From a virus, in IMG/VR virus record IMGVR_UViG_3300019890_000020, positions 1 to 23,243 of that record: DNA of 23,243 bases, one strand, 5' to 3'. The notes below the pieces were generated by a model. The model had not been told where the DNA came from. It did no database searches and saw nothing but the letters and a program-made list of their open reading frames with translations. Positions 507-18,300 of the stretch are shown here, piece after piece. A program made the translations under genes and the position numbers. Numbering within the stretch: position 1 is the first letter of the stretch; every line of letters starts with the position of its first letter.

Positions 507-929
507 ATGTGCATGTACGCACGTACCACGCTTATTACCAGGATGGGAGGGATGGACCTTGCGCTTGCCTACACGCTTGCGAAGTACGTTGCAGACATTC
601 GCGAGGAAGACGTCAGCGACTATAAATTCACGTGGTACGTCGGGACGCTCTACCACTCGTCCCTCCACGCCATGCCTTACTTCTACGCGCATGGACATCA
701 CCTCGATATGTACGACTGGGACGCACATGACTACCCTGTGTTGGGAGCTATGCACAGGCAGCTGGAGTACAACGATCGGCTAGACAAAGAAGAACGCATT
801 ATCAAACACGGTACCAGGGAGCGCCTACGCAAGCAGCGCCGCAAATTCCAAGCAGACGAAGATGCACAGATTGCGGTGCCCTGCCCGGTGGACTCCCTGG
901 ACCTAGAGAGCCTGGAGGGCAAGCGGTGA
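507..929 (+). CDS. Thymidylate synthase-fold protein, C-terminal fragment
   Basis: This is the continuation of the ThyA-like gene that begins at 97, lying in a different frame because of the 29-nt inverted insertion. The frame is open from 474; in the reconstructed protein the junction reads CILGFRCEPEPEMCMYARTTL with the inserted arm removed. MYARTT corresponds to the LYQRSAD phosphate-binding segment of ThyA, GGMDLALAYTLAKYVA to the helix after it, and FTWYVGTLYHSSLH to the VHTLGDAHLY region. The last 50 residues are charged (RLRKQRRKFQ) and unlike ThyA. ATG 507 is only the first start codon in this frame and has no clear ribosome binding site, so independent translation is doubtful. The stop at 927-929 overlaps the GTG of the next gene, which suggests the gene is normally intact. 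Confidence 0.55.
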   Translation: MCMYARTTLITRMGGMDLALAYTLAKYVADIREEDVSDYKFTWYVGTLYHSSLHAMPYFYAHGHHLDMYDWDAHDYPVLGAMHRQLEYNDRLDKEERIIKHGTRERLRKQRRKFQADEDAQIAVPCPVDSLDLESLEGKR

Positions 930-1759
930 GAAGCTATGGAGACAACACTCTGCCACGCATTATCCACTGGTTACGAGAGGACTTGTTGGATGCACCCGAG
1001 GCAGACGTAAAAGAAGTTCACTCTCAGAGTATCGCAGGCAAACCTGAGTACATCACCAAAGAGATCGAGAACGTTACCTTCCAGACTCTTCTTCCCAGCG
1101 AGGCCAAAGATCTGGCAGATATCACCGGAGCAAACCTGCCTTGGGCAGAGGACCACTTTCGGGAGCGCGTCAGTGGCAAGCCTCTCAACCCACCGCCTTC
1201 GGCGGCCTGGTGGCCCTACGCACAGAAAGGTCATGCAGAACACACCGACGAGAATGAAAAGTTCTCCCACACCTACCCTGAGAGGTTCTGGCCAAAGTTC
1301 GCAGAGAGAGTTCCCGTCCCCGAGGGAGCCGAACGCAAGATACGTGCTTCGAACAAAGGGATCCGTTATCGCTACGGGGATCTGTTAGACGTCGTGGGGC
1401 AGCTACACAAGAACCCTGCAACCAGGCAAGCATACCTACCCGTCTGGTTTCCAGAGGACACCGGAGCAACCCAGGGACAACGTGTGCCCTGTACCCTCGG
1501 ATACCACTTTCTTATCCGAGAAAATCGGCTCAACATCACCTACTTCATCCGCTCCTGTGACTTTATGCGTCACTTTCGAGATGACGTGTACATGGCAGGA
1601 CGGCTTGCTCAGTGGGTACGGTACGAGTTGATGAAACGTGAGGGTCCCGAGGACCTACCTGTACCACAGGGGTTGGTTGTAGGGCACCTGACCATGCACA
1701 TCGTCTCGATGCATATCTTCAAAGGCGACGTGCCCACCCTCGAAAGGCAACACGCATGA
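926..1759 (+). CDS. Thymidylate synthase, ThyA family
   Basis: This 277-aa cytoplasmic enzyme is predicted to convert dUMP to dTMP with methylene-tetrahydrofolate, or possibly to make a hydroxymethylated product. Motifs read in ThyA order: a substrate strand NPATRQAYLPVWFPEDTG (163-180; compare NPDSRR-IVSAWNPED), the catalytic Cys189 in VPCTLGYHF, Arg209 in YFIRSCDF (compare YQRSAD), the helix DDVYMAGRLAQWV, and GHLTMHIVSMHIF (253-265; compare HTLGDAHLY). The second Arg of the usual RR pair is Gln here. The first 120 residues are unlike canonical ThyA. GTG at 926 overlaps the upstream stop (GTGA), and its own stop overlaps the deaminase start (ATGA). It is the second of two tandem ThyA-fold genes. 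The deaminase next door supplies dUMP, which supports the role. Confidence 0.8.
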   Translation: MRSYGDNTLPRIIHWLREDLLDAPEADVKEVHSQSIAGKPEYITKEIENVTFQTLLPSEAKDLADITGANLPWAEDHFRERVSGKPLNPPPSAAWWPYAQKGHAEHTDENEKFSHTYPERFWPKFAERVPVPEGAERKIRASNKGIRYRYGDLLDVVGQLHKNPATRQAYLPVWFPEDTGATQGQRVPCTLGYHFLIRENRLNITYFIRSCDFMRHFRDDVYMAGRLAQWVRYELMKREGPEDLPVPQGLVVGHLTMHIVSMHIFKGDVPTLERQHA

Positions 1760-2247
1760 GACCTACCAGAGGAGAGACGTTCATGCGAGCAGCGCACCTG
1801 TTCGCAGAACGCTCTACCTGCAATCGAGGCCACGTAGGGGCGGTACTGGTGGCAAACAGACGCATCATTGCACACGGTTACAACGGTGCTCCTCCTGGGA
1901 TGCCTCACTGCACCGATGTGGGGTGCGAGTGTGTGACGGTAGAGGTTCACCCTCACGGTCCCGAGGATCTCGGGGTCGTAGAGGGTTGGGTTGAGGGATG
2001 CCAACGAACTGTTCACGCAGAGGCTAATGCCATAGCGTATGCGGCCAAAGCAGGGGTAGAGACGGAGGGGTCGTACATGTTCTGTACCCACTCGCCCTGT
2101 CGCAAATGCATGGAGTTGGCTGCCTGTGCTGGGGTGGTGGAAATCATCTATGACAAGCCTTACCGAGCAACTCCGTTCGAGTTGGCTCCGTCTATGGGAA
2201 TCATTATCGTGGGGAGAGAGGGACTCGATGCCAGAGACGAATTCTAA
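1756..2247 (+). CDS. dCMP deaminase (zinc-dependent cytidine/deoxycytidylate deaminase family)
   Basis: This 163-aa enzyme is predicted to deaminate dCMP to dUMP, the substrate of the adjacent thymidylate synthase. The family signature is complete: His87-Ala-Glu89 (TVHAEANAIAYAA) for the zinc ligand and catalytic Glu, and SPCRKC with Cys115 and Cys118 as the other zinc ligands. The N-terminal CNRGHVGAVLV and HGYNGAPPGMPHC blocks match phage and bacterial dCMP deaminases, where extra Cys/His residues (Cys22, His51 and Cys52 here) can hold a second zinc. Length is typical. The start overlaps the upstream stop (ATGA). The gene order of two ThyA-like genes then the deaminase is a compact dTMP-synthesis cassette. 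Confidence 0.9.
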   Translation: MRPTRGETFMRAAHLFAERSTCNRGHVGAVLVANRRIIAHGYNGAPPGMPHCTDVGCECVTVEVHPHGPEDLGVVEGWVEGCQRTVHAEANAIAYAAKAGVETEGSYMFCTHSPCRKCMELAACAGVVEIIYDKPYRATPFELAPSMGIIIVGREGLDARDEF

Positions 2248-2674
2248 TGCAGAGGATGAGATGGAGGGATATGTCGGTCCTGGCCGACACAAAATGCCTA
2301 CGGACAGAGACGGGCTTAGTCACCGAGTAAAGATCGGGGGAATGGTCGGGTACATCACCGCAAACCCCCAGGACGACGGAACGCTCGGAGAGATTTTCAT
2401 CCATGGATTCGGGCAGCTAGGTAGCACTAACGCAGGGTGGACTAACGCATTTGCGATCATGGTATCTATCGGCTTGCAGTATGGAGTCGAGCTACCGATG
2501 CTTGCTCGCAAGTTTGCCCACATGAAATTCGACCCTAACGGTGAAACCGACAACCCAGCTATACCTCACTGCCAATCGATCCCTGATTATATCTTCAAGT
2601 GGATTGCTCTCCACTACGGAGACGACCAGCTCCGAGAGGAACTGCGCAAGATAGATGAGGAGCTTGGAAGGTGA
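2228..2674 (+). CDS. TSCPD-domain protein (ribonucleotide reductase-associated C-terminal domain)
   Basis: The product is about 148 aa. Most of it matches the TSCPD domain that usually forms the C-terminus of B12-dependent ribonucleotide reductases or occurs alone: a basic start (GRHKMPTDRDGLSHRVKIGG), a beta segment GYITANPQDDGTLGEIFIHG, a helix around AFAIMVSIGLQYGVEL, and SIPDYIFKWIALHYGD near the end. Its exact job is not established; the position beside dCMP deaminase and DNA polymerase suggests a nucleotide-metabolism role. The start is placed at ATG 2228, preceded by GGAGAGAGGG and overlapping the deaminase by 20 nt. An in-frame ATG at 2261 is an alternative. The longer open frame from 2126 lies almost wholly inside the deaminase gene and is rejected. 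No reductase catalytic domain is in the window. Confidence 0.7.
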   Translation: MPETNSNAEDEMEGYVGPGRHKMPTDRDGLSHRVKIGGMVGYITANPQDDGTLGEIFIHGFGQLGSTNAGWTNAFAIMVSIGLQYGVELPMLARKFAHMKFDPNGETDNPAIPHCQSIPDYIFKWIALHYGDDQLREELRKIDEELGR

Positions 2675-5049
2675 CGTTTCAAGAGAAGATCCGCAACCCC
2701 TCATGTACTCTGTGTCCGATGTACGAGGAAGCAGGTCACGTATGTCTTATGGGAGAGGGAGCACGCAAGGCGCAGATCTTCATAGTAGGAGAGGCACCTG
2801 GGGCGCAGGAGGACGAAGAGGGCCGTCCCTTTATCGGCTCCTCTGGCAAGCTGCTCACGAAGATGCTGAAAGAAGTAGCTGGCATAGATCGCAAAGACTG
2901 CTATATCACGAACGTAATCAAGTGTCGCCCACCTGACAACTCCACGCCAGGCAAAAAAGATATCAAGATCTGCGTGGAAGAGTACCTAGTCAAGGAGCTT
3001 GAAAGTGTCGAACCTAAGTGGGTCCTTACCCTTGGAAACTCAGCTCTCCAAGGAGTCCTGGGAAAATCTGGAATCACCAAGCACAGGGGGAATCTCACTA
3101 AACTTGGGGATTTCTCTGTTTTCCCTACGTTTCACCCTGCCGCTGTTCTGCGTAATCCGCGTTACGAGAACGAGCTCGTCGCTGATCTTCGGAAGTTCGG
3201 TGATCTCGTTAGAGGGGAAGATAACGCTCCTAAGACGAAGATCAAAATCATCCGGAACCTCAAGCAACTAAAGTGGTTAGATAAGGAGTTATTCGTAGCG
3301 AGAGGATTTACCTACGATATCGAGACGAACTATCTGCCTTACTGGGACCCGAACTTCAAAATAGTCTCGATCGCCTTCTCCTTCCGTGCAGAAGAGGCCG
3401 TTGTTGTACCCATCTACCATGATGAATCTCCATGGAAAGACCCGGCCGAGATACTTCATTTTCTTGGTAGATGGATGAAGCACAAGGATGCCAAACACGT
3501 AGCTCACAACGGCAAGTTCGATGCACAGGGAATGAAGAACTATGACATCGAGACGTATCAGACGTTTGACACTATGCTCGCGGCACACATGCTCGACGAG
3601 AACAGGTCAAAGGGTCTAAAGAATCTGTCTCAGTTCTACCTCCAAGCAGATGCCTATGGCTTAGGAGATGAGCTCAAAGACGCCCACAAAATCCCCCTTA
3701 AGAAACTGGCACTCTACAACGGTCGTGATACTGACTACACCCTGCGCCTCTACGGCAAAATGAAGAAAGAGCTGATCGAGGAACCACGAGTGCGTCGAGT
3801 CTTCCAGCGTCTAATGATGCCGGCCTCCAACGCTATCGTCAACGTAGAGCGACGCGGAGTACAGATCGACTACAAACGATGGACAGAGCGCAATGACATC
3901 GTGCAGGCCAACATCGCCAAGATCGAAAAGGCTATGCTCCCATATGTGCCAGAGCATATGCGCGCCGACATGAACTTCAACTCTCACCCTAAAGTAGCCA
4001 AATGGCTGTTCGAGGAATGTGGGTATGACGTACTAGAAGAGACGGAGAAAGGCGCCCCCTCGTCTAAAGAGGCAGTGCTACTCCAAATGCAAGCGGAGAG
4101 TCGAGAGGCAGCAATTCTCCTCAAATTCCGAAAATGGTTCAAGTACAACAGCACCTACTTCAGGCCGTGGATGGAGCGCTCCGACTCACAGAAAAAGATC
4201 CACCCTCAGTACAAGCTATACGGCACTGTCACCGGGCGCCTTTCCTGTGTTGAACCGAACTTGCAGCAAGTACCTCGGGAGCCGTTCGTACGCAGCGTCC
4301 TAGGCGCCTCCCCAGGCAACGTGTGGGTAGAGGCAGATTACTCACAGGCAGAGCTCAGGATCGCAGCAATGCTGGCTCACGAGACGAGGATGCTCCGCAT
4401 GTTCCAAGCGGGAGAAGATATTCATCTCAACACCGCTGCTGAAACGTCGGGTAAATCCAAAGACTCTATCACGAAGGAGGAGCGCAAGAAAGCCAAGGCC
4501 GTAAATTTTGGTTTCCTCTACGGCATGATGCCTAAAAAATTCGTCACCTATGCGCGTGACAACTATGGTGTCGTTGTCTCTCTTGCAGAGGCCACTAGAG
4601 TACGGGAACGGTTCTTTGCGTCCTATCCTGCTCTGCACCCCTGGCACGAGCGCCAGAAGCGTCTAGCGCACCGCTACAAGCGTGTAAGCAGCCCTATCGG
4701 GAGGGTCCGGCATCTACCTGACATTGACAGCCATGTAGACGGCATCAGGATGGATGCAGAGCGCCAGGCAATCAACAGTCCTGTACAATCCCTGGCCTCG
4801 GACTTCACGCTGCTGGCGATGATCTTGTTAGAGGAACAAGGCATCCCTGTGGTGGGTCTTATCCATGATGCTCTCGCCTTCGACATACCGGAAAACAAAC
4901 TCGAGTGGGCGCTCCCGATCATCAAACACACTATGGAAAACCTACCCCTCAAGAAGCTGTTTGATCTAGAGATAACCGTGCCGATCGTGGTAGATGTTTC
5001 TGTAGGGACTCATTGGAGTGACCCAACACAGAGGGAGTGGGAGGGATGA
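2671..5049 (+). CDS. Fused family-4 uracil-DNA glycosylase, 3'-5' exonuclease and family A DNA polymerase
   Basis: This is the replicative polymerase, 792 aa, with three domains. Residues 1-185 are a family-4 (Fe-S) uracil-DNA glycosylase: GEAPGAQEDEEGRPF, KCRPPDNSTPG, LTLGN, TFHPAAVL, and four cysteines placed as cluster ligands (12, 15, 85, 101). Residues 205-370 are a proofreading exonuclease with Asp216/Glu218 (YDIETN), Asp284 (HNGKFD) and Asp353 (YNGRDTDY). Residues 375-792 are the polymerase: TGRLSCVEPNLQQ, motif A Asp556 (EADYSQAELR), motif B Lys609/Phe613/Tyr617 (KAVNFGFLYG) and motif C His732-Asp733. Every catalytic position looks intact. Phe613 aligns with E. coli Pol I Phe762, so discrimination against dideoxynucleotides is expected. 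The GTG start overlaps the previous stop. The glycosylase could scan for uracil ahead of synthesis or remove it behind, which is inference. Confidence 0.92.
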   Translation: MTFQEKIRNPSCTLCPMYEEAGHVCLMGEGARKAQIFIVGEAPGAQEDEEGRPFIGSSGKLLTKMLKEVAGIDRKDCYITNVIKCRPPDNSTPGKKDIKICVEEYLVKELESVEPKWVLTLGNSALQGVLGKSGITKHRGNLTKLGDFSVFPTFHPAAVLRNPRYENELVADLRKFGDLVRGEDNAPKTKIKIIRNLKQLKWLDKELFVARGFTYDIETNYLPYWDPNFKIVSIAFSFRAEEAVVVPIYHDESPWKDPAEILHFLGRWMKHKDAKHVAHNGKFDAQGMKNYDIETYQTFDTMLAAHMLDENRSKGLKNLSQFYLQADAYGLGDELKDAHKIPLKKLALYNGRDTDYTLRLYGKMKKELIEEPRVRRVFQRLMMPASNAIVNVERRGVQIDYKRWTERNDIVQANIAKIEKAMLPYVPEHMRADMNFNSHPKVAKWLFEECGYDVLEETEKGAPSSKEAVLLQMQAESREAAILLKFRKWFKYNSTYFRPWMERSDSQKKIHPQYKLYGTVTGRLSCVEPNLQQVPREPFVRSVLGASPGNVWVEADYSQAELRIAAMLAHETRMLRMFQAGEDIHLNTAAETSGKSKDSITKEERKKAKAVNFGFLYGMMPKKFVTYARDNYGVVVSLAEATRVRERFFASYPALHPWHERQKRLAHRYKRVSSPIGRVRHLPDIDSHVDGIRMDAERQAINSPVQSLASDFTLLAMILLEEQGIPVVGLIHDALAFDIPENKLEWALPIIKHTMENLPLKKLFDLEITVPIVVDVSVGTHWSDPTQREWEG

Positions 5050-6225: not shown

Positions 6226-6450
6226 ATGGACTATAAGAAGATGAAGGAGAAGGTCGCAGATGCGGCTGACGTTCTGAACAACGGGTTAAAAGTGGATAAC
6301 CCGGAATGTGAGGACGAAAACAATGCCATGGAAGCTGCGATCGCCATGATGTCGGCAGGGATTCAAACTCTGGTAGATATCGCAAAATCTCTCAACAAGG
6401 CCAACGAGCTCAAGGCTACGGAGATCAGGAACAATGCCCGATCTCTCTGA
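6226..6450 (+). CDS. Small hypothetical helical protein
   Basis: A 74-aa protein that starts directly after the nuclease stop with AAAGGATG upstream. It is predicted almost entirely helical (MKEKVADAADVLNNGL... and a second amphipathic stretch AMEAAIAMMSAGIQTLVDIAKSLNKAN). It has no membrane span and no recognised motif. It overlaps the next gene by 17 nt. It lies in the recombination gene set, but no function can be assigned. Confidence 0.65.
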   Translation: MDYKKMKEKVADAADVLNNGLKVDNPECEDENNAMEAAIAMMSAGIQTLVDIAKSLNKANELKATEIRNNARSL

Positions 6451-6664
6451 ACAGATATCCAAAAAACTGAAGACGGCCCTACGGGAGGAGACGCGTGAAA
6501 AACGCAATCTGCACTCCTCGGTTTCCTTGGGTACGCAATCCAGCTATGCCAGAAAATACACCGAAGCGCACATGAAGGTCAAGATACTCCGAGGCGCACT
6601 CTGTCAAGAGTTAGGCATCGAGGAGCCAAAACTCGAAGACCTATTGAAGGACGACGATGGCTAA
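6434..6664 (+). CDS. Small hypothetical protein
   Basis: A 76-aa charged, helical protein with basic and Ser/Thr-rich N-terminal and middle parts (EETREKRNLHSS) and an acidic end (EEPKLEDLLKDDDG). ATG 6434 has AGGA 4-7 nt upstream. It overlaps the previous gene by 17 nt and the Sak4-like gene by 8 nt, which implies translational coupling. No domain is recognised. Confidence 0.6.
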   Translation: MPDLSEQISKKLKTALREETREKRNLHSSVSLGTQSSYARKYTEAHMKVKILRGALCQELGIEEPKLEDLLKDDDG

Positions 6665-7415
6665 AAAGAGAAAGCGAAAACTAAAGTCATCACAGGTAGC
6701 CTCTCAGATCAAAGACGTGGGGGAAGCTAATCCCTACGTCAAGATCTTGATCTACGGGCGCAACGGGAAAGGCAAGACTCGGTTTGCTGCGTCGGCTCCT
6801 AAGCCGCTGATCATCGATATCAACGAGAAGGGTACCCGGTCGGCCCGTAGCTTCAAAGGTGCCAAAGTCATCGAGGTCAGCAACTGGTTTGATCTAGGAG
6901 CCATTTACTGGTACCTGAAGAAAGGCGACCACGACTTCCAGTCGGTAGCGATCGACACGCTCACGGCCTTGCAAGCCCTGTGCATGGAACAAGTCCTCTA
7001 CGAAGGATATGAGCGTGACTCTACGCGCGATCCTAAAACCCCGACGCAGCGGGACTGGGGGAAGACGGCAAACCTGATGAAGGAGGAAATCCTCAAATTC
7101 AGGAACCTCCCCATGAACGTGATCTTCACCGCACAGGAGAGGACTACCGGTGATCCCGAGGAGGGAGAACCGATCCTTGTGACGGTAGACCTACCCAACG
7201 GCGCGCGCGTCCCTGCCCTAGGAGCAGTGGAGGTAGTAGGCCGCGTCTACAAGAAACAGGTGAGGAACAAAAAAACCAAAAAATCGAAGTGGGAGTTTCG
7301 CATGTTAGTAGGGGATCATGAGGAATACGACACCAAGGACCGAACGTTCTCCTTGGGACACGTACTCCGCGAACCCTCAGTACCCAAGATCATCAAAGCA
7401 TCGATAGAGGAGTGA
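6657..7415 (+). CDS. Sak4-like RecA-family ATPase (phage single-strand annealing/recombinase)
   Basis: A 252-aa P-loop ATPase. After a basic N-terminus (KKRKRKLK) it has Walker A GRNGKGKT at residues 34-41 and a Walker B-type strand ending SVAIDTLT (96-103). The layout (short N-terminal basic tail, KILIYGRNGKGKT, PLIIDINEKGT, then the Asp strand) matches the phage Sak4/AAA_24 group, minimal RecA-like proteins that work with a phage SSB in homologous recombination. The SSB-like gene two places downstream and the exonuclease upstream fit this. GAAGGA precedes the ATG. The C-terminal third contains a Lys-rich loop (KKQVRNKKTKKSK) that could bind DNA. Confidence 0.8.
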   Translation: MAKKRKRKLKSSQVASQIKDVGEANPYVKILIYGRNGKGKTRFAASAPKPLIIDINEKGTRSARSFKGAKVIEVSNWFDLGAIYWYLKKGDHDFQSVAIDTLTALQALCMEQVLYEGYERDSTRDPKTPTQRDWGKTANLMKEEILKFRNLPMNVIFTAQERTTGDPEEGEPILVTVDLPNGARVPALGAVEVVGRVYKKQVRNKKTKKSKWEFRMLVGDHEEYDTKDRTFSLGHVLREPSVPKIIKASIEE

Positions 7416-7416
7416 C

Positions 7417-7653
7417 ATGGAACAGGTAGACAGGGCGTTTCCATCCGACGCCAACCCCGATCGCGTTGTGGAGGATGCCACCCCTAACGAGGAAGTCAAC
7501 GTAGAAATCAACAACGCACTGGATGCAGCAAGGGATCTAAAACCCAGTCGCGCAAACAGCCTGGTTATCACTAAGCTGGAAGAGGCACAGATGTGGAATG
7601 CTCGCGATGAGCAACTAAGGACTAAAGAACAGGAGAACCCGATCAATGGCTAA
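7417..7653 (+). CDS. Possible Acb2-like (Acb2/Tad1 hairpin) cyclic-nucleotide sponge
   Basis: A 78-aa protein with an acidic, variable N-terminus and a core at residues 43-60 (SRANSLVITKLEEAQMW). As remembered from the family, this is close to the pattern SRE-SLA-TKLEEA-MW of phage proteins annotated as Acb2/Tad1 hairpin proteins, some of which bind cyclic di- or trinucleotides and so block CBASS or Thoeris signalling. The resemblance is by eye over about 20 residues. The family is broad and many members are untested. It lies between the Sak4-like and SSB-like genes, an ordinary early-gene location for such a factor. ATG 7417 follows GAGGAG. It overlaps the next gene by 8 nt. Confidence 0.5.
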   Translation: MEQVDRAFPSDANPDRVVEDATPNEEVNVEINNALDAARDLKPSRANSLVITKLEEAQMWNARDEQLRTKEQENPING

Positions 7654-8392
7654 AAAACGCCGCAGCAGTAAATCGTCCGGGAGCGCCGATGTTTTCAGCG
7701 TTGACTTTAGTAAGGAAGTCGAGGGTGGTGGAGGCGGAGTACGCGTCCCCGAGAACGACTACAAACTGAAGATCCTCAAGCTCAAAAAAATCCGGGCGTC
7801 TGAGAAAGACACCCCAGGTATCGCCGTCACGGTGAAAATTGTCGAAGGCAAGTTCGCCGGCAAGAAACTCACCGATCGACTGTGGATCACTCCTAAGTCT
7901 CTCTGGCGCCTGCGGTCCTTGCTGGAAGCCCTAGGGATGGAGGTTCCGAAAAAGGCCGTCAAGCTCCCGGCGAAAAAAATCGTCGGCAAGGAAGTCGGAG
8001 CCACGATCATCGACGACGACCCCTACAACGGGCGCATCAAGTCGAAGATCGGAGACTGGATCGATCTGGAGACGCTTGCAGATCTCGACAGTGACGATGA
8101 GGACGACGAGGATGAGGAGTACGACGACGAGGACTCCGATGAGGACTCGGACGATGAGGACGAGGATGACGACGAGGATGAGGATGACGAGGATGAGGAT
8201 GAGGACGACGATCTAGAGGAGATGGATCGTAAGGAACTCAAGGCGTACATCAAGGAGAACGAACTAGAGGTAAAGGTCACCAAGAAGATGGACGAGGATG
8301 CAATTCGAGAGGCTATCGAGGAGGCATCCGAGGATGAGGACGAGGATGACGATGAGGACGACGAGGACGAGCTAGACCTCGACGAGCTCTAA
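7646..8392 (+). CDS. Single-stranded DNA-binding-like protein with acidic tracts and an embedded HeH/SAP-like domain
   Basis: A 248-aa protein. Residues 30-140 look like the OB-fold region of phage SSB-like (DUF669-type) proteins: PENDYKLKILKLKKI, GIAVTVKIVEGKFAGKKL, and the SLWRLRSLLEALG helix. Residues 148-189 are almost only Asp/Glu. Residues 190-226 (EEMDRKELKAYIKEN...REAIEE) resemble small helical HeH/SAP/Rho-N nucleic-acid-binding modules. Residues 229-248 are a second acidic tail. An acidic tail is typical of SSBs, where it recruits partner proteins; one interrupted by a folded module is less usual. AGGAGAA precedes the ATG. It neighbours the Sak4-like ATPase, its likely partner. Confidence 0.65.
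   Translation: MAKKRRSSKSSGSADVFSVDFSKEVEGGGGGVRVPENDYKLKILKLKKIRASEKDTPGIAVTVKIVEGKFAGKKLTDRLWITPKSLWRLRSLLEALGMEVPKKAVKLPAKKIVGKEVGATIIDDDPYNGRIKSKIGDWIDLETLADLDSDDEDDEDEEYDDEDSDEDSDDEDEDDDEDEDDEDEDEDDDLEEMDRKELKAYIKENELEVKVTKKMDEDAIREAIEEASEDEDEDDDEDDEDELDLDEL
8086..8219 (+). repeat. Low-complexity GAY/GAR codon repeat (acidic tract)
   Basis: The tract is built of GAC, GAT, GAG and a few TCC/TCG/TAC codons in irregular hexamer-like repeats (GAGGAT, GACGAC). A shorter copy lies at 8326-8391. It encodes the poly-Asp/Glu segments of the SSB-like protein and could expand or contract by slippage. Confidence 0.85.
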
Positions 8393-9507: not shown

Positions 9508-9913
9508 AGTGGCTAAGCATTCCAGCAGAGCCCGGGGGGTCTACCTTCTGGAGGACCACGCCCTTGTTCGGTACACGCCACACAGCATAGGTGGCAGCGA
9601 TGAAGGCGTAGATAAAGCCTCCGATCTTGACTCCTGTAGCTGCGGGGATTTCGTGGAAAAACAGGGCAATTGAGAAAAGTCCCGGGAGCAACTGGGATAC
9701 CGCCTTGTCGACCGCATCCTGGGTAACGTTCTTCGTCATCACCACAGCCACAGTCGCACCTAGCAAAGGGATCAACGAGATGACTTTAGATTCAAAGTCT
9801 GCGTTGATGTGGAATCCGAAGATGTTCCCTCCCCAGAACAGGGCGATTGCTGCGAATGCAAAGATCGCAAAGCTGGTCAGAGCCTTTGCGTACTTTTGAA
9901 TCATTGCTGTCAT
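9506..9913 (-). CDS. Holin-like multi-span membrane protein
   Basis: A 135-aa hydrophobic protein with about four membrane segments: FAIFAFAAIALFWGGNIFGF (14-33), VISLIPLLGATVAVVM (44-59), LLPGLFSIALFFH (75-87) and IGGFIYAFIAATYAVW (97-112), then a polar tail. It starts in an ATGA overlap with the amidase stop and has AAGGAGAG 7 nt upstream. Small multi-span proteins directly after an endolysin are usually holins, which open the membrane to release it. The role rests on topology and neighbourhood, not on a sequence match. It is the last gene of the block. Confidence 0.72.
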   Translation of the reverse strand: MTAMIQKYAKALTSFAIFAFAAIALFWGGNIFGFHINADFESKVISLIPLLGATVAVVMTKNVTQDAVDKAVSQLLPGLFSIALFFHEIPAATGVKIGGFIYAFIAATYAVWRVPNKGVVLQKVDPPGSAGMLSH

Positions 9914-10569
9914 GCTCTCTCCTTCTTAGGACGACCCGAACCCTCGGATCCGGGGATCAACGGTTTGACGTGATGCACCCTGCGGATATCGTTGATCTTC
10001 TTCCGCAAGTGGTTGGTGTGTGGTGCAGCTGGGTGCAGCTGATCTGCGATGAAGTATTGTGCCAGTAGGGTGACGTACCCCTGTGGGTAGCCGGCGCCGC
10101 AGTCTGAATGACCACTGCCTGAGATCCCGAGATCCTTGTGCTGGAAGATCCCTGGCACGATGATCGAGGATCCAGAGCACTTGCCCTTCTGCAACGGGAC
10201 TCCGTAGTGGATGTGCCCGTACACAAGGAATTCGGCGGCGCCGTGTAGTTGCTCGTGACGCTCTCCGAACCACTGAGCCTCGGTGTAGGCAGCAAAGGCG
10301 ATCTGCTCCAGGCTGAGCGTGATCGAGTTGTAATTGCAGACGGCCCACGCCTTCGCGGCATCATCTACATAGCGTCCGAAGACACCCTTGACGTTCACCC
10401 CTAAGTGTGCGGAAGCCTCCTCGTTATGGAAAATACTGCCAAGAGTTTTGAGATCTGCCATCCCAGAGGGGTTATCACTACCCTCTGTGGTATGGAGAAC
10501 TAGTCCGTGAATACGAGCTCCCTCTCGACTGGACTGCTTTGGTGAGATATCGGTGTAATCAACTTTCAT
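9910..10569 (-). CDS. Endolysin: N-acetylmuramoyl-L-alanine amidase (Amidase_2/PGRP-like)
   Basis: A 219-aa enzyme predicted to cut the bond between MurNAc and the stem peptide. Zinc-site residues in the order of the T7-lysozyme fold are His26 (GLVLHTTEG), His144 (FQHKDLG, compare HRDV) and Cys157 (HSDCGAGYP, compare TECPG); Glu88 (SLEQI) is in the usual active-site strand. The fold ends near residue 175. The basic tail (LRKKINDIRRVHH...GRPKKERA) has no known wall-binding repeat. There is no signal peptide, which fits export through a holin. The start is ATG 10569 because AAGGAGGA lies 4 nt upstream; a longer open frame to 10614 overlaps the collagen-like gene. Confidence 0.88.
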   Translation of the reverse strand: MKVDYTDISPKQSSREGARIHGLVLHTTEGSDNPSGMADLKTLGSIFHNEEASAHLGVNVKGVFGRYVDDAAKAWAVCNYNSITLSLEQIAFAAYTEAQWFGERHEQLHGAAEFLVYGHIHYGVPLQKGKCSGSSIIVPGIFQHKDLGISGSGHSDCGAGYPQGYVTLLAQYFIADQLHPAAPHTNHLRKKINDIRRVHHVKPLIPGSEGSGRPKKERA

Positions 10570-10579
10570 CCTGTCCTCC

Positions 10580-11287
10580 TTATTGAGGTACGCAAGTAAA
10601 CGTACCGTTTTCATTGTCAGTACAAGTAAGGGTACTTACTGCACCAGGTTCACCTGGAGGTCCCGGGGGTCCTTCGGGACCGGGTGGTCCTTCCGGTCCT
10701 ACGGGGCCGACCGGGCCTTCAACTCCTTGAGCTCCTACTTCACCGTTAGCCCCGGTTGTTCCGGTTTCACCCTTGTCACCCTTATCCCCTTTGGCACCTG
10801 CTTCACCATTAAGTCCCGGTTCACCCTTACTACCATTTGAGCCGCGTTCACCGTTAATTCCGTTTACTCCAGAGTCACCCTTAGGCCCTTCAAGACCCAT
10901 CGGGCCGGGAGGCCCTTCGGGACCAAGTACACCTCGTTCGCCTTTAGGGCCTACCGGACCTCGTTTTCCTTGTGATCCCGGAAGACCGATGCCAGCTGGT
11001 CCTGGTTCCCCAGGTTTACCGTTGGCGCCAGGTACACCGGGCAGGCCCCGTTCTCCACGCAGATATTCAAGCGTTGCCGAGAGTTTGTGCCGGTTTTTGG
11101 CTGACTGATGTCTGGCAATCGTTGCCTTGCCTGACGCCTTGGTTGCAGTCCTCTGAGCCTGTGCAGTTGCATCCTGTCGTTCACTAGAGTGGTTGGCAAG
11201 AAGGAGGTAGAGAACGACAAGAACACAGATCAGAATTGCGGCAGCGATTAAGAGTAGAGTCTTGTTTCTACGGCTGAGGTTTTTCAT
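10580..11287 (-). CDS. Membrane-anchored collagen-like protein
   Basis: A 235-aa protein with a short basic N-terminus, one membrane span (LLLIAAAILICVLVVLYLLL, about 11-30), a polar 45-residue stem, 46 Gly-X-Y triplets (78-217) and a short end with two cysteines (STLTCTDNENGTFTCVPQ). The triplets run unbroken except for one missing residue at GI-GLP. They are rich in GPP, GEP, GDK and GER, as in trimeric bacterial and phage collagen-like proteins. Phage collagen repeats usually sit in tail fibres; the N-terminal span is unusual and suggests insertion in the host membrane or a cleaved leader. It overlaps the XhlA-like gene (ATGA) and precedes the endolysin. Function unknown. Confidence 0.75.
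   Translation of the reverse strand: MKNLSRRNKTLLLIAAAILICVLVVLYLLLANHSSERQDATAQAQRTATKASGKATIARHQSAKNRHKLSATLEYLRGERGLPGVPGANGKPGEPGPAGIGLPGSQGKRGPVGPKGERGVLGPEGPPGPMGLEGPKGDSGVNGINGERGSNGSKGEPGLNGEAGAKGDKGDKGETGTTGANGEVGAQGVEGPVGPVGPEGPPGPEGPPGPPGEPGAVSTLTCTDNENGTFTCVPQ
10637..11056 (-). repeat. Gly-X-Y (collagen) codon repeat
   Basis: 46 triplets, each beginning with a GGN codon, give 9-nt periodicity, with one 3-nt phase break. On the + strand the same region reads as Pro-rich frames that are only shadows of this repeat. Confidence 0.9.
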
Positions 11288-13223: not shown

Positions 13224-15343
13224 CAGGATACCCCACTAGTGAATAGATAAGCTGGTCTATAGCGATACTTGATGGATATTGAGTTGGATTCGGAATCGGC
13301 CTTGGTTTCGAAGTCTCCGCGAGTAGGTATGAATATTCCTCGCATAGGACGTGCCTCTAAGCCTCCAGGTTTAAGGTAAGGCATGAACCCGAGAGGGGTA
13401 AGTCGTGCCCAGGAGGCTTCACCTACCGATTCCCTGAAGCAACCGTCCGAACGAAGTTCCATCTTTTTACCGGCATAGCAGACAGCTCCACGTTCTTCTG
13501 ATTCAGGTTTATTGGCTACAAGATAACCATAAGAGCGTATTTCTTTGTCAGATTCAGTTGCCCCCGCAGCAAGATCTATAGTCCCGGTCTTGCCTTCTTT
13601 CAGCGCCCCGGTTTTATTCAGTGCAGCATCAATGGTGTTTAACGTAGTAACACTTACCGTTCCGGAGTTGTTAGGGGATGAGAAGAAGGCTGCGGTAATT
13701 TCACCTTCTTCGGTGAGGGTAGCCATTATCTTCGTGACACCGTGTCTTTTGGTTCCTATCCCGGCCAAGCCTTTTTTCAGTACGGTTTTGACTCCAGCTA
13801 CACATTTGATGATCTGAAAGTATTGTTCGTTGGCGGCTTCTTGCTTCACAACAAGACCTAGCCAGTTTTCTGCACTGGTGAAACGTAGGACGAAGCCGAA
13901 CATACTACCAGTGGTTCTCTGCGTCCCGATGACGTTGCCCCCGGTATTTTCCATCGTCCCCTGGAAGACCTGATTACCTGGTATGTTCGTGCTGGATACC
14001 GTAAAATTAGCCACGGTGTCACTGAATTCAGCCCTGGTCATGATGGTTGACGTAGCCAGGTTAGGTATTATCGAGATGGACCCTCTATAAGTCAAACCTA
14101 CGGCATCCCCGAAGGATTCGAATTTACCTCCGACAGTAGGAGTCGATCCGGTGACAGCCCCGGGGGCTTCCGGTCCATAGATCTGTTCAAGCACTACAGG
14201 AGAGAAAGCTTCTGATTCCTTCTCGTAAACCAAGGAGAGATACTGCTCGGTAGGCAGGACCCAGAATTTGTCAAGTTCAATTTCCTGATTGGCAGACGTT
14301 GCCCTACCCAGAAGTCTCCATTCCCACGTTTGGTTACCTAAGACAGCCGTTTCAGGACGGCATTCTCCGAGGTTCATGATGCAGAACCCGGCAACCAACG
14401 TAGTGACTACTTCTTCGTTTTCCGTCCAGAAGTCAGAGCCTAAGGCTTTCCACTGAAGTTTTAGATGAATATTTCCGGGGGTAGCGTTCGGGTCCCAGAC
14501 TCTTACCAAGAGATTACGAGGTCCGGTATGAGTCATCTGCCCCGACGCCGTAATTTTAGATCCCAACACAGGTTGATAGGTCGGCACCAGTTTAGACTTG
14601 ACGGTAGCTGCGCCTATGGATCCAGTGCGAGCTCCTGCTTCTGAGTTACCTAGTTTGGTAAGTTCAGAGGCAAGGTACCCCATCTTTGCTGTGTTGGCTC
14701 CTGAGTGATCTCTTGCCTCGATGGCAGAGATGGCTCCATGCCAGTCTCCTGAGGTACCGGCGTTTTTGTTTTCGATTTCCAGACGCAGGAGACCGGGGGC
14801 GGTACCGATAGGTTCAACGATTTCCCATTCGACGTCATGCCCATTAGAAACCGTGACTGCGTTGCCTTCCACTTCTTCGGTGGCGTAGAAGTAGGGGCTA
14901 CACGTCATGACAAGAGTGACCTCGGGAGCCGCCCCCCTGTGTCCCATGTACCACCCATCCACTCCGGTCAGGGATGCTTTGTAGACTATCGCGCCTACAG
15001 CACGTTTGAACTGACCGCGGGAATCCATGATGCGCTTGATCCAACCCCCAGATTCTTGGAGGGTGTTTACCTTGGCCTGTAGTTTGCTCAAGGCTTCTGC
15101 AAATGAGATGCCACCTTCTCGGGTAACAAGCAATTTCATGGTGACAGTTCGGTTGGGAGGGTGTCGTTCAGCAGGAATTTCACCAAGTTCCTGTTTGACC
15201 ATAAAGAGTTCTATATCCGAGTCGCCCCAGTTGGCTTCGCGAACATGGATGCCAAGTTTGTCGAGTTCCAGCGCTACGCGCCCCGAGATGAACTCGGATG
15301 AATCTATTACCGCAGTTTCGGTACTTCCCATTACTGATGGCAT
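13223..15343 (-). CDS. Large minor tail protein (distal tail-like N-terminus)
   Basis: A 706-aa protein coded directly after the tape measure gene, where siphophages encode the distal tail (Dit) protein. The first 200 residues fit a Dit-type beta domain: strands with a conserved TMKLLVTREGG, then a PYFYATEEVE stretch typical of Dit or minor tail proteins. The rest is repeated beta-sandwich-like sequence (around 200-370 and 420-600) that could be carbohydrate- or surface-binding, as in evolved Dit proteins with inserted lectin-like modules. No catalytic motif is seen. The start overlaps the tape measure stop (TGATG); MGS five residues in is an alternative start. The receptor-binding role is inference. 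Confidence 0.7.
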   Translation of the reverse strand: MPSVMGSTETAVIDSSEFISGRVALELDKLGIHVREANWGDSDIELFMVKQELGEIPAERHPPNRTVTMKLLVTREGGISFAEALSKLQAKVNTLQESGGWIKRIMDSRGQFKRAVGAIVYKASLTGVDGWYMGHRGAAPEVTLVMTCSPYFYATEEVEGNAVTVSNGHDVEWEIVEPIGTAPGLLRLEIENKNAGTSGDWHGAISAIEARDHSGANTAKMGYLASELTKLGNSEAGARTGSIGAATVKSKLVPTYQPVLGSKITASGQMTHTGPRNLLVRVWDPNATPGNIHLKLQWKALGSDFWTENEEVVTTLVAGFCIMNLGECRPETAVLGNQTWEWRLLGRATSANQEIELDKFWVLPTEQYLSLVYEKESEAFSPVVLEQIYGPEAPGAVTGSTPTVGGKFESFGDAVGLTYRGSISIIPNLATSTIMTRAEFSDTVANFTVSSTNIPGNQVFQGTMENTGGNVIGTQRTTGSMFGFVLRFTSAENWLGLVVKQEAANEQYFQIIKCVAGVKTVLKKGLAGIGTKRHGVTKIMATLTEEGEITAAFFSSPNNSGTVSVTTLNTIDAALNKTGALKEGKTGTIDLAAGATESDKEIRSYGYLVANKPESEERGAVCYAGKKMELRSDGCFRESVGEASWARLTPLGFMPYLKPGGLEARPMRGIFIPTRGDFETKADSESNSISIKYRYRPAYLFTSGVS

Positions 15344-18300
15344 CAGCGCGTAGCCCCTCCTGGCGTTCTCGATCGAGTAGCCGTGGTCGCCTGCTTTCGG
15401 GTAACTTTCGTGATCTCTGCCTCGGTGTCGAATGCTCTACCGTTGGCACGACCGGTGACTCTGTTGTCTGCCTCGTGGAACTCGATCTTTTCGAAGTTGA
15501 CCCCAGGTTTGCCGGAGGCTGCTACCACGCTGCGTCTTTCGGCGTTGCTGACTACGTTGGATCCGTTAGGCAGTAAGACTGTCTCTGCCCCGTTCTCGCC
15601 GACCGTAGCAGCTACCAGGCCTCCTTTGGCAAAGGCTCCTGCGTTAGCTATTGCAGAGACGGACTGCATAGACGCCATCACAGGGGATTGAGCCTGCAAC
15701 GTGAGCAGGTTCCTTTGGAGTTCTTCGTTGATTACTTTCTGGTCTGCGAGCTGTTCTTCGGTGTTCTCTTTGGCAAAGACGTTGCCCGGTAGGCCGGAGA
15801 TCGCTTCTTCGGTCCCCTTGAGTGCCTCAGCCCACTGAGTGATTTCTTCGAGGTTGCCAGAGGCCTCTGCTTCTCCTAGCCGTTCAATGTCGAGGGATTT
15901 CTCTCGTTCGAGGACTGCGAGGTTATCCTCTTCTCCCGGGGTAAGTTCGGCTAGCGCCATCGCTGCTTCGATTTCCTTCATCGCCTTCATCGGAAGAGCA
16001 CGTTTTTCTGCGTCCGATTCGGTGAAGGCTTCTATGTGCGGATGCAGAGCTTCATCGATAGCCTTCAGCTGTTGCTCGGTGGCAAAGAGTTCTCCACCGA
16101 TTTCATCCATCGGGGGAGCATGGTTCATCTTGTCCAGAGGACCCCCTAGGCCCTGGACCGTCTGGAGACCGAGAAAGTTCTGGTTACCGGCGGATCCCCC
16201 ACTGGAGTAGATGGCGAAGGCGGTGCTGGACAACCCTTCCCTCTGCGTTTCTAGAGTGGGGATAACTTCGTTCAACACGGATTCCTGACGTCCGAATCGG
16301 GTGACGTCTCGTTCTATCCCCTTGACAGCCTTTTCGTCTCCATGAATCTTCTGGTTCGTGTCGTTGATCTTTTCGTTGATAGCTTTTATGGAGTCGTGGC
16401 TGGCTGAGCCCGTATTGTTGATTGCGTGTTGCTTGTCTGAGATCTGAGCTCGAAGGCTTGCCTCTTCTTGGTGAACAGCCGCCGTCTGCTTGGCGCCTTC
16501 TGCCTTGGACAGTTGGTGTTCAAGCTGCTTCTGTTCTTTTTCAAGAGCCTGGGTGTTTTGATTCTTGGCAAGTTCGATGGTGCGAATTTCGGATTCGAAC
16601 TTCTTGACTTCCTCTTCGAAGTCCTTGATCTTCTTTTCGACCTCACGTTTGTGCTTTTCAGCCTGGCGGATATCCTTCATCACTTCGGTCAGTTGCTTCT
16701 TCGAGGACTTGAAGATCTTGATTACATAATCTTTCTTGCCTTCGACTATGTCGTGAGCCGTGAGCAACTGATTGCGCAGTCCTACCAGAGAGCCGAGCTT
16801 GGAGTTCAGCCACTGCCCGTCGGTTTTGTTGTTGAATTTACCCTGGACCAGCCATTCAGTGGCTTTGCCTTCTTTTTCCAGCTTTTCGATATCCTTCGCA
16901 GGAGCTACTTCGGTTTTGTCGAGGGATTCTGCGTTGGTAGCGTATTCTCCATATTTTTCAACGTTCGTGGTCATGCTAGCCAGCTTGCTGAGCTGGGCTC
17001 CTTTGATGCCGATACCTTCGATAGTATTCAGGAGGGGTTTGACCTTGGCTTCTGCTTTGACGATAGGCCCGGTTTTTTTGGCCCCTGCTCCTTTGACTAT
17101 CCCTTCGATGTCTTTGATCGGGTGCGCTACGCCACCTTTCTGCAACCCCATGGAGAAGGCCTTTTCAGCGCCTTCTTCACGGTTAGCCTGATTCTCGGTA
17201 GGAACGTAAGGCTTCTCCCATTCTTCCATGAAGTAGACAGCGGCTTGTGCTGCACTGTCAGAGGAGTTCAGCCCCGAGATGATTCCACTGGAGATATGTT
17301 CCAGAGCAAAGACCATTTGGAATGATGGGTCTCCCCACGGCTTACCTGCGGCTTGTGCTGCGGCTTGCTCAGAAGCCAGGGAGATTTCGCCTGCCGTAAA
17401 TCCTAGTAGACCGCCACCTCCACTACCTACTGCTTCGGGGTCCCATCCTGACTCTTGCCACGCATTACCCAAGATACCTGCGGCACCTATCTTGTTCAAA
17501 CCGTTGGCGAGTAGGGTTTTACCAGCTGCCTCTACCGCGTTGTTCCCCTGAATTTCGGTGAACTTACCGCCGATGCTGGATCCGGTAGGAGCTTTCTTGG
17601 CGATGTATTCATTAGCCGCTTTGTAGACCTGAGTCAAGGCCTCGTTGCCCAGTTCAGAGAGTTGACCGTCGGGTCCACCCATACTGACTTTTCCGATCTT
17701 GGGAACCACAGAGGAGGCGGAGTTGAGGTTACCTGCGCCGCCCGACCCCATCACAGAGGCCAGCGCCTTTGCCGTCTGTTCACCGAAGAGTTGAACGTGG
17801 TTTACCTCTTCTGCCGATTCGGGATAGAACGGACGGTACAGTCCTGCTTCTTTGAGTTGAGCTTCCTTGGCTGCAAACATCGAGTCTCGTAGGGAAGACC
17901 CGATGCCGATGTCGGCAGCTTCTCCCTTGGTGTGTGGGTCATCGGGGAATCCTCCGACTTCCACGGAATGTTGTGGGGAGCGATATCCTGAGATGACGTA
18001 GACGACTTCGGAGATCTCTTGCGAATACTTGTTAAGGTCCGCAAGAATCTGAGGCTCCTTACCTACACTCATGTTGACCCCGGAGTTGAGGACGACTCCG
18101 CCTGCTGCGAAAGCACCCCCTTCTTGGAACCGGGGTACTGCGTTGTTGATCGCTTCTAGTTGCCCGAGCTTCTTGGAAGCATTACGGTTGAGAACGTGAA
18201 CGATCTCTCCGGGCTCCACCATAGCCGTCAGAGGTACCTTGTCGCCAGCGCCGCTTCCAGGTACGACGATACCTCCTGTCTGTTTATGGGCTTTGTGTCC

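What the first reader, a model, noticed from the sequence alone, without database searches (positions are those of the whole stretch)
7417..7653. Candidate anti-CBASS (Acb2-like) sponge within the recombination genes
The core SRANSLVITKLEEAQMW closely follows the pattern remembered for Acb2/Tad1 hairpin proteins, with substitutions where others have E and A. If right, the phage may blunt cyclic-nucleotide immunity. The N-terminus is longer and acidic, so ligand choice may differ.
Basis: partly seen in the sequence, partly recalled or inferred. Interest (0 to 1): 0.6.

Follow-up and report, generated by a model that had tools for sequence, protein, structure and literature searches.

The report
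Likely phage nucleotide-signal sponge protein
A small phage gene appears to encode a divergent relative of the Acb2/Tad1 proteins, which soak up the alarm nucleotides bacteria use against phages; it is a plausible new member of a known kind, and its function is untested.

Summary
The 78-aa ORF at 7417-7653 (+) is real: it follows a GAGGAG site, overlaps the next gene's start, and sits between Sak4-like and DUF669-like genes. It is a divergent relative of the Acb2/Tad1 hairpin domain. Pfam PF24729 is its best match (E 6e-5, 23.6 bits), below the curated 27-bit cut-off. A profile of 56 viral relatives scores it 60 bits, against at most 10.5 for 2,000 shuffles. AlphaFold gives a two-helix hairpin (23-39, 45-73); CbTad1 heads the weak Foldseek PDB list. 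It keeps the family's most constant residues (R45, T52, K53, E56, W60), but its first 22 residues match nothing, the usual glutamate is Ala46, and the dinucleotide-stacking aromatics of T4 Acb2 are not evident. Two relatives of this phage lack the gene at this junction, one by a clean 233-base gap, so it is an accessory gene. Best reading: a sponge for bacterial immune nucleotides, perhaps cyclic trinucleotides. Kinship and hairpin are well supported; hexamer, ligand and anti-CBASS activity are untested. Acb2 versus Tad1 descent is unsettled (the tree leans to Acb2). New member of a known kind; modest interest.

The parts
7417..7653 (+). Acb2/Tad1-hairpin-like protein, 78 aa
   Evidence: ORF; PF24729 E 6e-5, 23.6 bits, under cut-off 27; relatives' profile 60.0 bits
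7407..7412 (+). GAGGAG, likely ribosome-binding site of the gene, just before the Sak4-like stop
   Evidence: sequence; inference from position
7417..7482 (+). N-terminal arm, residues 1-22: acidic, no family match, low model confidence
   Evidence: pLDDT 50-57 in residues 1-20; scores within shuffles
7483..7533 (+). predicted helix 1, residues 23-39
   Evidence: AlphaFold2 with alignment and without
7549..7635 (+). predicted helix 2, residues 45-73, with R45, A46, T52, K53, E56, W60
6657..7415 (+). upstream neighbour: Sak4-like ATPase
   Evidence: phrog_124 E 1.1e-47, AAA_24 E 6.8e-25
7646..8392 (+). downstream neighbour: DUF669-like protein with acidic tail; its start overlaps the end of the gene
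   Evidence: PF05037 E 2e-4, phrog_3724 E 7.3e-38
7414..7646 (+). stretch absent at the same junction in relative L002 (L002 5757 and 5767 flank it)
   Evidence: blastn and alignment

Best explanation
The gene encodes a small accessory counter-defence protein of the Acb2/Tad1 hairpin kind. Shown here: sequence kinship, the family's constant residues, and presence or absence at one junction among related phages. Predicted: a two-helix hairpin. Inferred by analogy: several copies assemble (a hexamer in Acb2 and Tad1) and bind and hold, without cutting, the nucleotide second messenger of a host immune system (CBASS, Thoeris or type III CRISPR), so that the effector is not switched on. More speculative: the ligand is a cyclic trinucleotide such as cA3, because the R-x6-T pair shared with CbTad1 and the PaMx33-type Acb2 is kept, Acb2 and Tad1 both have a trinucleotide site at the trimer interface, and the aromatics that stack on cyclic dinucleotides in T4 Acb2 are not evident.
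For: PF24729 is the best Pfam match, E 6e-5; relatives' profiles without this protein score it 35.7-60.0 bits, the best shuffles 7-11; PDB profile search puts CbTad1 (2.7e-7) and 'Acb2 homolog 43' 9ptq (1.5e-6) on top (the alignment includes this protein and 12 relatives); hairpin model with and without alignment; CbTad1 ranks 1-4 of 61 in Foldseek PDB and hairpin-named proteins ranks 1, 4, 5, 6, 8 in BFVD; R45, T52, K53, E56, W60 kept, T52 matching T4 T68, where T68M is said to lower binding affinity (PMC12657230 legend); accessory gene absent from two relatives.
Against: Below Pfam's cut-off; signal almost all in helix 2, residues 1-42 within shuffles for each subfamily profile; no Foldseek match at E 0.001, and unrelated helical chains reach Z 7.0 against 5.8 and 6.2 for Tad1 and T4 Acb2; E46 changed to A; Y8 and F82 of T4 Acb2 have no clear counterparts; no host known, no assay.
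Confidence: 0.65

Rival explanations
1. It is a stripped-down Tad1: the Tad1 hairpin without its N-terminal beta domain, still aimed at the Thoeris signal gcADPR.
For: Best tblastn hits are Tad1-like (L016, L018, 44-45%); highest subfamily score is Tad1-like (43.1 against 41.4 and 35.7), with likeness DGTTNEEV / DATPNEEV before helix 1; N47 as in 24 of 57 viral relatives, mostly the Tad1-like ones.
Against: Tree splits it from the Tad1-like set with SH-aLRT 99 (71 columns only); residues 1-42 alone do not score above shuffles with the Tad1-like profile (84 of 1,985 scored shuffles as high); no beta domain.
Confidence: 0.15
2. It is a decayed or retargeted hairpin protein that no longer sequesters immune nucleotides.
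For: A46 in place of the near-constant glutamate and no evident dinucleotide-stacking aromatics. Loss of Acb2 can help phages escape Panoptes (PMC12657218 and PMC12657230, passages).
Against: Frame intact with a good ribosome-binding site; R45, T52, K53, E56, W60 all kept; A at the same place also occurs in L066, which passes the Pfam cut-off at 70 bits.
Confidence: 0.1
3. It is an accessory recombination or replication protein that works with Sak4 and the DUF669-like protein, unrelated to immune signals.
For: Position between Sak4-like and DUF669-like genes, overlapping the latter; of 12 phage relatives 4 have recombination-type genes within about 2.5 kb (L006, L007, L013, L015), L010 an 'endonuclease'.
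Against: Two relatives have Sak4 and DUF669-like genes without it; AAA_24 is over its cut-off in 6 of 47 records given (47 of the 60 loci), none within 3 kb of the hairpin gene; other relatives sit by endolysin, holin, terminase, ThyX or ribonucleotide reductase genes.
Confidence: 0.05
4. The likeness is a chance motif on an unrelated coiled hairpin.
For: Sub-threshold Pfam score; helical hairpins are common and structure matches weak.
Against: 0 of 2,000 shuffles in each of two sets come near; no other frame of 1,142 scores; PHROG and PDB searches agree.
Confidence: 0.05

Closest known systems
Tad1 (Thoeris anti-defence 1), CbTad1, PDB 7uav/7uaw/8kbe/8kbf
   Same: Helical hairpin with R-x6-T and T-x3-EEA-xMW; 1.1 A over 47 residues, 26% identity to 7uav_C; top of Foldseek PDB list; profile E 2.7e-7.
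   Different: Tad1 carries an N-terminal beta domain that takes part in gcADPR binding (review PMC12043709, passages); this protein has only 22 unmatched residues there. The tree sets it apart from Tad1-like relatives.
Acb2 (T4 Vs.4, PDB 7uq2; PaMx33-type p26, PDB 8h2j/8ixz)
   Same: Same size class, hairpin without beta domain, TKLxEAxMW core shared with T4; Pfam places T4 Vs.4 in PF24729.
   Different: Only 25% aligned identity to T4 Acb2; T4 loop between helices is longer; Y8 and F82 not evident here; T4 has D where this protein has R45.
Short hairpin proteins of mycobacteriophages and other phages (e.g. LoneWolf gp49, prophi91-3 gp62; 'Acb2 homolog 43', PDB 9ptq)
   Same: Similar length and plan: an arm of about 20-30 residues, then the hairpin with PGREKxLAxTKLEEAMFW; 9ptq is hit by L053 at E 7.4e-5.
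   Different: Those tested pass the Pfam cut-off easily (68-80 bits), this one does not. Their role in mycobacteriophages is called unknown (PMC11953737, passages).

Membership tests
Acb2/Tad1 hairpin domain (PF24729) | Profile match over Pfam's curated cut-off (27 bits) | tested here: not met
   23.6 bits, E 6e-5, profile 30-51 of 58. 2 of 10 scanned phage relatives are under it too.
Acb2/Tad1 hairpin domain (PF24729) | Sequence homology to the domain | tested here: met
   60.0 bits with a profile of 56 relatives that leaves it out, shuffles at most 10.5 of 2,000; relatives were confirmed against this protein, so the figure is favourable.
Acb2/Tad1 hairpin domain (PF24729) | Two antiparallel helices | tested here: met
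   Predicted helices 23-39 and 45-73, near 98 pLDDT; 23-38 and 43-72 without alignment. A prediction, not a solved structure.
Acb2/Tad1 hairpin domain (PF24729) | Family's most constant residues in helix 2 | tested here: inconclusive
   R45, T52, K53, E56, W60 kept; the usual E is A46 (54 of 57 viral, 21 of 22 genome, 11 of 12 phage relatives have E).
Acb2 (anti-CBASS 2) | Short N-terminal helix before the hairpin | tested here: inconclusive
   Residues 1-22 have no predicted helix and low confidence as a monomer.
Acb2 (anti-CBASS 2) | Dinucleotide-contact residues Y8 and F82 (T4 numbering) | tested here: inconclusive
   F82 place is Q66; Y8 place not identifiable, F8 nearby. F82 is not family-wide: 0 of 12 phage relatives.
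Acb2 (anti-CBASS 2) | Hexamer that sequesters cyclic nucleotides and blocks CBASS | not testable with these tools
   Needs multimer modelling, binding and plaque assays.
Tad1 | N-terminal beta domain before the hairpin | tested here: not met
   Only 22 residues before helix 1, no strand predicted.
Tad1 | Binds gcADPR | not testable with these tools
   Needs a binding assay.

The most novel reading that the evidence does not exclude
A hairpin-only sponge in which the dinucleotide (or gcADPR) pocket is gone and only the trinucleotide site shared by Acb2 and Tad1 remains: a trinucleotide-only sponge, possibly kept because it defeats cA3-signalling CBASS or type III CRISPR without tripping Panoptes-type guards that respond to loss of dinucleotides.
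Probability: 0.15. Interest if true: 0.55.

Novelty: new member of a known kind. Interest (0 to 1): 0.33.

Why it matters
If it works as a sponge, it extends counter-defence by nucleotide sequestration to an uncultured phage lineage and to a sequence that standard annotation (Pfam cut-off, NCBIfam) passes over. With two related phages lacking exactly this gene, it offers a natural with/without comparison. Ligand choice in this family matters because Panoptes turns dinucleotide sequestration against the phage.

Tried and rejected
A single-protein search of IMG/VR with this protein found no relative by tblastn. The best partial identities over 50 or more residues found later were about 45%; higher figures (up to 80%) are over about 20 residues of the core only. 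A weak PF24729 hit in the sister genome (L003, 14.6 bits in a 252-aa frame) was set aside as chance: at that threshold 8 of 14 control genomes ring, and this protein finds nothing in that record. NCBIfam has no match for it or for four relatives including T4 Acb2. The Pfam hit to Tla3_C (E 0.0069, under its cut-off) was taken as chance in the acidic arm. I first favoured a 'mini-Tad1' because of the ATPNEEV likeness; the helix-1 test and the tree did not support it, so it is kept as a rival. Adjacency to Sak4 as a family rule was tested and not found. Known Acb2 chain 8h2j does not appear in the fold search lists shown; that says nothing against the fold. The primary papers on Acb2 and Tad1 structures are not held, so residue roles come from passages of PMC12657218, PMC12657230 and PMC12043709. 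That R67 of the PaMx33-type Acb2 and N92 of CbTad1 touch ligand is recalled and comes from no call.

Biases: the 60 viral and 22 genome relatives were chosen by a TK..E..x(M/F)W pattern and confirmed against this protein, so constancy of T, K, E and W there is built in and the home-made profiles favour it; the Pfam and PHROG tests and the 12 phage relatives (12 of 36 records hit, picked by eye for variety) were not pattern-chosen. Profiles used 56 of 60 loci; four near-copies (L029, L047, L058, L059) were left out. Starts of relatives were taken as the first ATG after a stop and may be too far upstream in some.

Full report
What is there. The window is a virus record of 23,243 bases. At 7417-7653 on the + strand lies a 78-codon ORF starting with ATG. 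GAGGAG at 7407-7412 precedes it; the upstream Sak4-like gene ends at 7415 and the downstream DUF669-like gene starts at 7646, overlapping the last 8 nt. Gene order is exonuclease, two small ORFs, Sak4-like, this gene, DUF669-like with a long acidic tail, and a resolvase-like gene. Upstream are thymidylate synthase-like, dCMP deaminase and UDG-DNA polymerase A genes.

Kinship. Pfam-A's best match is PF24729, Acb2/Tad1 hairpin domain: E 6e-5, 23.6 bits, residues 35-60, curated cut-off 27. Two PHROGs of unknown function match about the same stretch at E 6e-4 and 8e-4. In PDB sequences the only hit at E up to 10 is Tad1 8kbb (E 1.5); a 13-row alignment that includes this protein gives 2.7e-7 for CbTad1, 1.5e-6 for 'Acb2 homolog 43' (9ptq) and 0.3 for T4 Vs.4. 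tblastn against phages gives 36 records, best E 7e-3. Of 12 of these fetched, 10 were scanned: all 10 have PF24729 as best match, 8 of 10 over the cut-off. An alignment search of viral contigs gave 60 loci (limit of 600 candidate stretches reached). A profile of 56 of them, without this protein, scores it 60.0 bits; the best of 2,000 shuffles scores 10.5. Among 1,142 stop-to-stop frames from the window and loci L002, L077, L078 and L079 it is the only real hit. The signal is mainly in helix 2: residues 43-78 give 42.0 bits; residues 1-42 give 6.1 bits with the pooled profile (above all 2,000 shuffles, best 4.9) but lie within the shuffles for each subfamily profile; residues 1-22 show nothing.

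Fold. AlphaFold2 with 42 rows gives helices 23-39 and 45-73, mean pLDDT 80.2, pTM 0.60, 97-98 in residues 31-60, and 50-57 in residues 1-20. Without an alignment the same two helices appear at lower confidence (72.6, pTM 0.35). Foldseek against the PDB has no match at E 0.001 or better; the first four of 61 are CbTad1 at E 1.5 to 2.0. Against BFVD, also none at 0.001, proteins named Acb2/Tad1 hairpin are ranks 1, 4, 5, 6 and 8 of 284. In the second look 7uav_C superposes at 1.1 A over 47 residues (Z 5.8, 26% identity) and 7uq2_A has Z 6.2, but unrelated helical chains reach Z 7.0. The fold agrees with the family but does not prove it alone; the sequence does most of the work.

Residues. Counted from the T of TKLEE, R at -7 is in 55 of 57 viral, 22 of 22 genome and 12 of 12 phage relatives; this protein has it (R45). 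T52, K53, E56 and W60 are kept; in the phage set, not chosen by a pattern, these are 12, 11, 11 and 11 of 12. At -6, E is in 54 of 57, 21 of 22 and 11 of 12; here it is A46, shared by one viral relative, L066. T68 of T4 Acb2 aligns with T52; T68M is described as lowering T4 Acb2 binding affinity (PMC12657230, figure legend passage). F82 of T4 Acb2 stacks on bound dinucleotide and Y8A disrupts binding (PMC12657218, passage). The F82 place is Q66 here; F stands there in 2 of 22 genome and 0 of 12 phage relatives, so it is not a family-wide feature. No clear partner for Y8 exists, though F8 is near. R and T stand 7 apart in CbTad1 (R91 and T98 of chain 7uav, counted) and in the PaMx33-type Acb2 (R67 and T74 of chain 8h2j, counted), as here; T4 has D in place of R. 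Acb2 and Tad1 are both said to bind trinucleotides at the trimer interface, apart from the dinucleotide or gcADPR sites (review PMC12043709, passages). From this I infer that the shared trinucleotide site is the likelier one to survive here. That is an inference, not a test.

Acb2 or Tad1. The Tad1-like profile scores it 43.1, actinophage-like 41.4, Acb2-like 35.7 (the subfamily names are mine, from looking at the sequences). A quick tree on 71 columns puts it on the side of the Acb2-like and actinophage-like sets, apart from the Tad1-like set with SH-aLRT 99, and resolves nothing further. It has no beta domain. I call it a divergent Acb2/Tad1-hairpin protein and leave the subfamily open.

Accessory nature. 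The nearest relative found, IMGVR_UViG_3300036792_000159 (L002), is 98% identical in the best segment of the Sak4 protein and about 80-88% in DNA across the region, but window 7414-7646 has no counterpart: the match stops at 7413 (L002 5757) and resumes at 7647 (L002 5767). A second relative, IMGVR_UViG_3300021445_000013 (L078), has the Sak4 frame ending at 2667 and the DUF669-like frame starting at 2668. This protein finds nothing in the whole L002 record. Two absences in two relatives make gain in this lineage the simpler story; loss is not excluded. GC is like the neighbours' (0.519), GC3 0.57 being the lowest of eight genes compared. Relatives sit in varied settings: of 12 phage loci, 4 have recombination-type genes within about 2.5 kb (L006, L007, L013, L015) and L010 an 'endonuclease'; others sit by endolysin, holin, terminase, ThyX or ribonucleotide reductase genes. 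AAA_24 is over its cut-off in 6 of 47 records (47 of the 60 loci were given), none within 3 kb of the hairpin gene by the contig ranges. This argues against a fixed role with Sak4.

How it most likely works. By analogy with Acb2 and Tad1, copies of the hairpin assemble and hold a nucleotide signal so that the bacterial effector is not activated. Kinship is shown and the hairpin predicted; assembly, binding and protection are inferred. I put the sponge reading at 0.65 and a trinucleotide-only sponge at 0.15.

Literature seen. Passages only: PMC12043709, PMC11722364, PMC12657230, PMC10022894, PMC10419184, PMC12657218 (a residue search found nothing), PMC11953737, the last reporting Acb2-type genes in two mycobacteriophages with unknown role. 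The searches listed no paper that I could tie to this phage; they were not aimed at it by name, since its name is not known. The primary structure papers are not held.

Verdict.

Noticed in passing
2671-5049 (+): Uracil-DNA glycosylase domain fused to a family A DNA polymerase (PF03167 E 5.7e-34 at residues 28-173; PF00476 E 1.1e-81). tblastn hits in Streptomyces phages Zuko and KimJongPhill cover 99% of it, so the fusion is not unique.
   Followed up: partly
926-2674 (+): Divergent thymidylate synthase-like protein (phrog_160 E 4.6e-30), dCMP deaminase and a TSCPD-domain protein beside the UDG-polymerase: a nucleotide-metabolism cluster that might go with unusual DNA bases.
   Followed up: no
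6226-6664 (+); L002 4543-5023; L078 1899-1900: The junction between exonuclease and Sak4 also varies: two small ORFs in the window, the second 75% identical in L002, the first without a blastp match there, and none in L078.
   Followed up: partly
7646-8392 (+): DUF669-like protein with a very long D/E tail broken by a short helical-looking stretch (DRKELKAYIKENELEVKVTKKMDEDAIREAI); the same plan in L002 and L078.
   Followed up: no
L078:3409-3789 (+): A 126-aa ORF that reads like a LAGLIDADG-type homing endonuclease (YLAGFIDGEGCF; by eye) sits between the DUF669-like and resolvase-like genes of the relative.
   Followed up: no
15343-21483 (-): 2,046-aa protein with phage tail lysozyme (PF18013 E 1.7e-17) and peptidase M15 (PF08291 E 3.6e-6) domains and no PHROG match at 1e-5.
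   Followed up: no
10580-11287 (-): Collagen-like tail-fibre protein (PF01391 E 1.2e-22) next to an amidase gene at 9910-10614.
   Followed up: no
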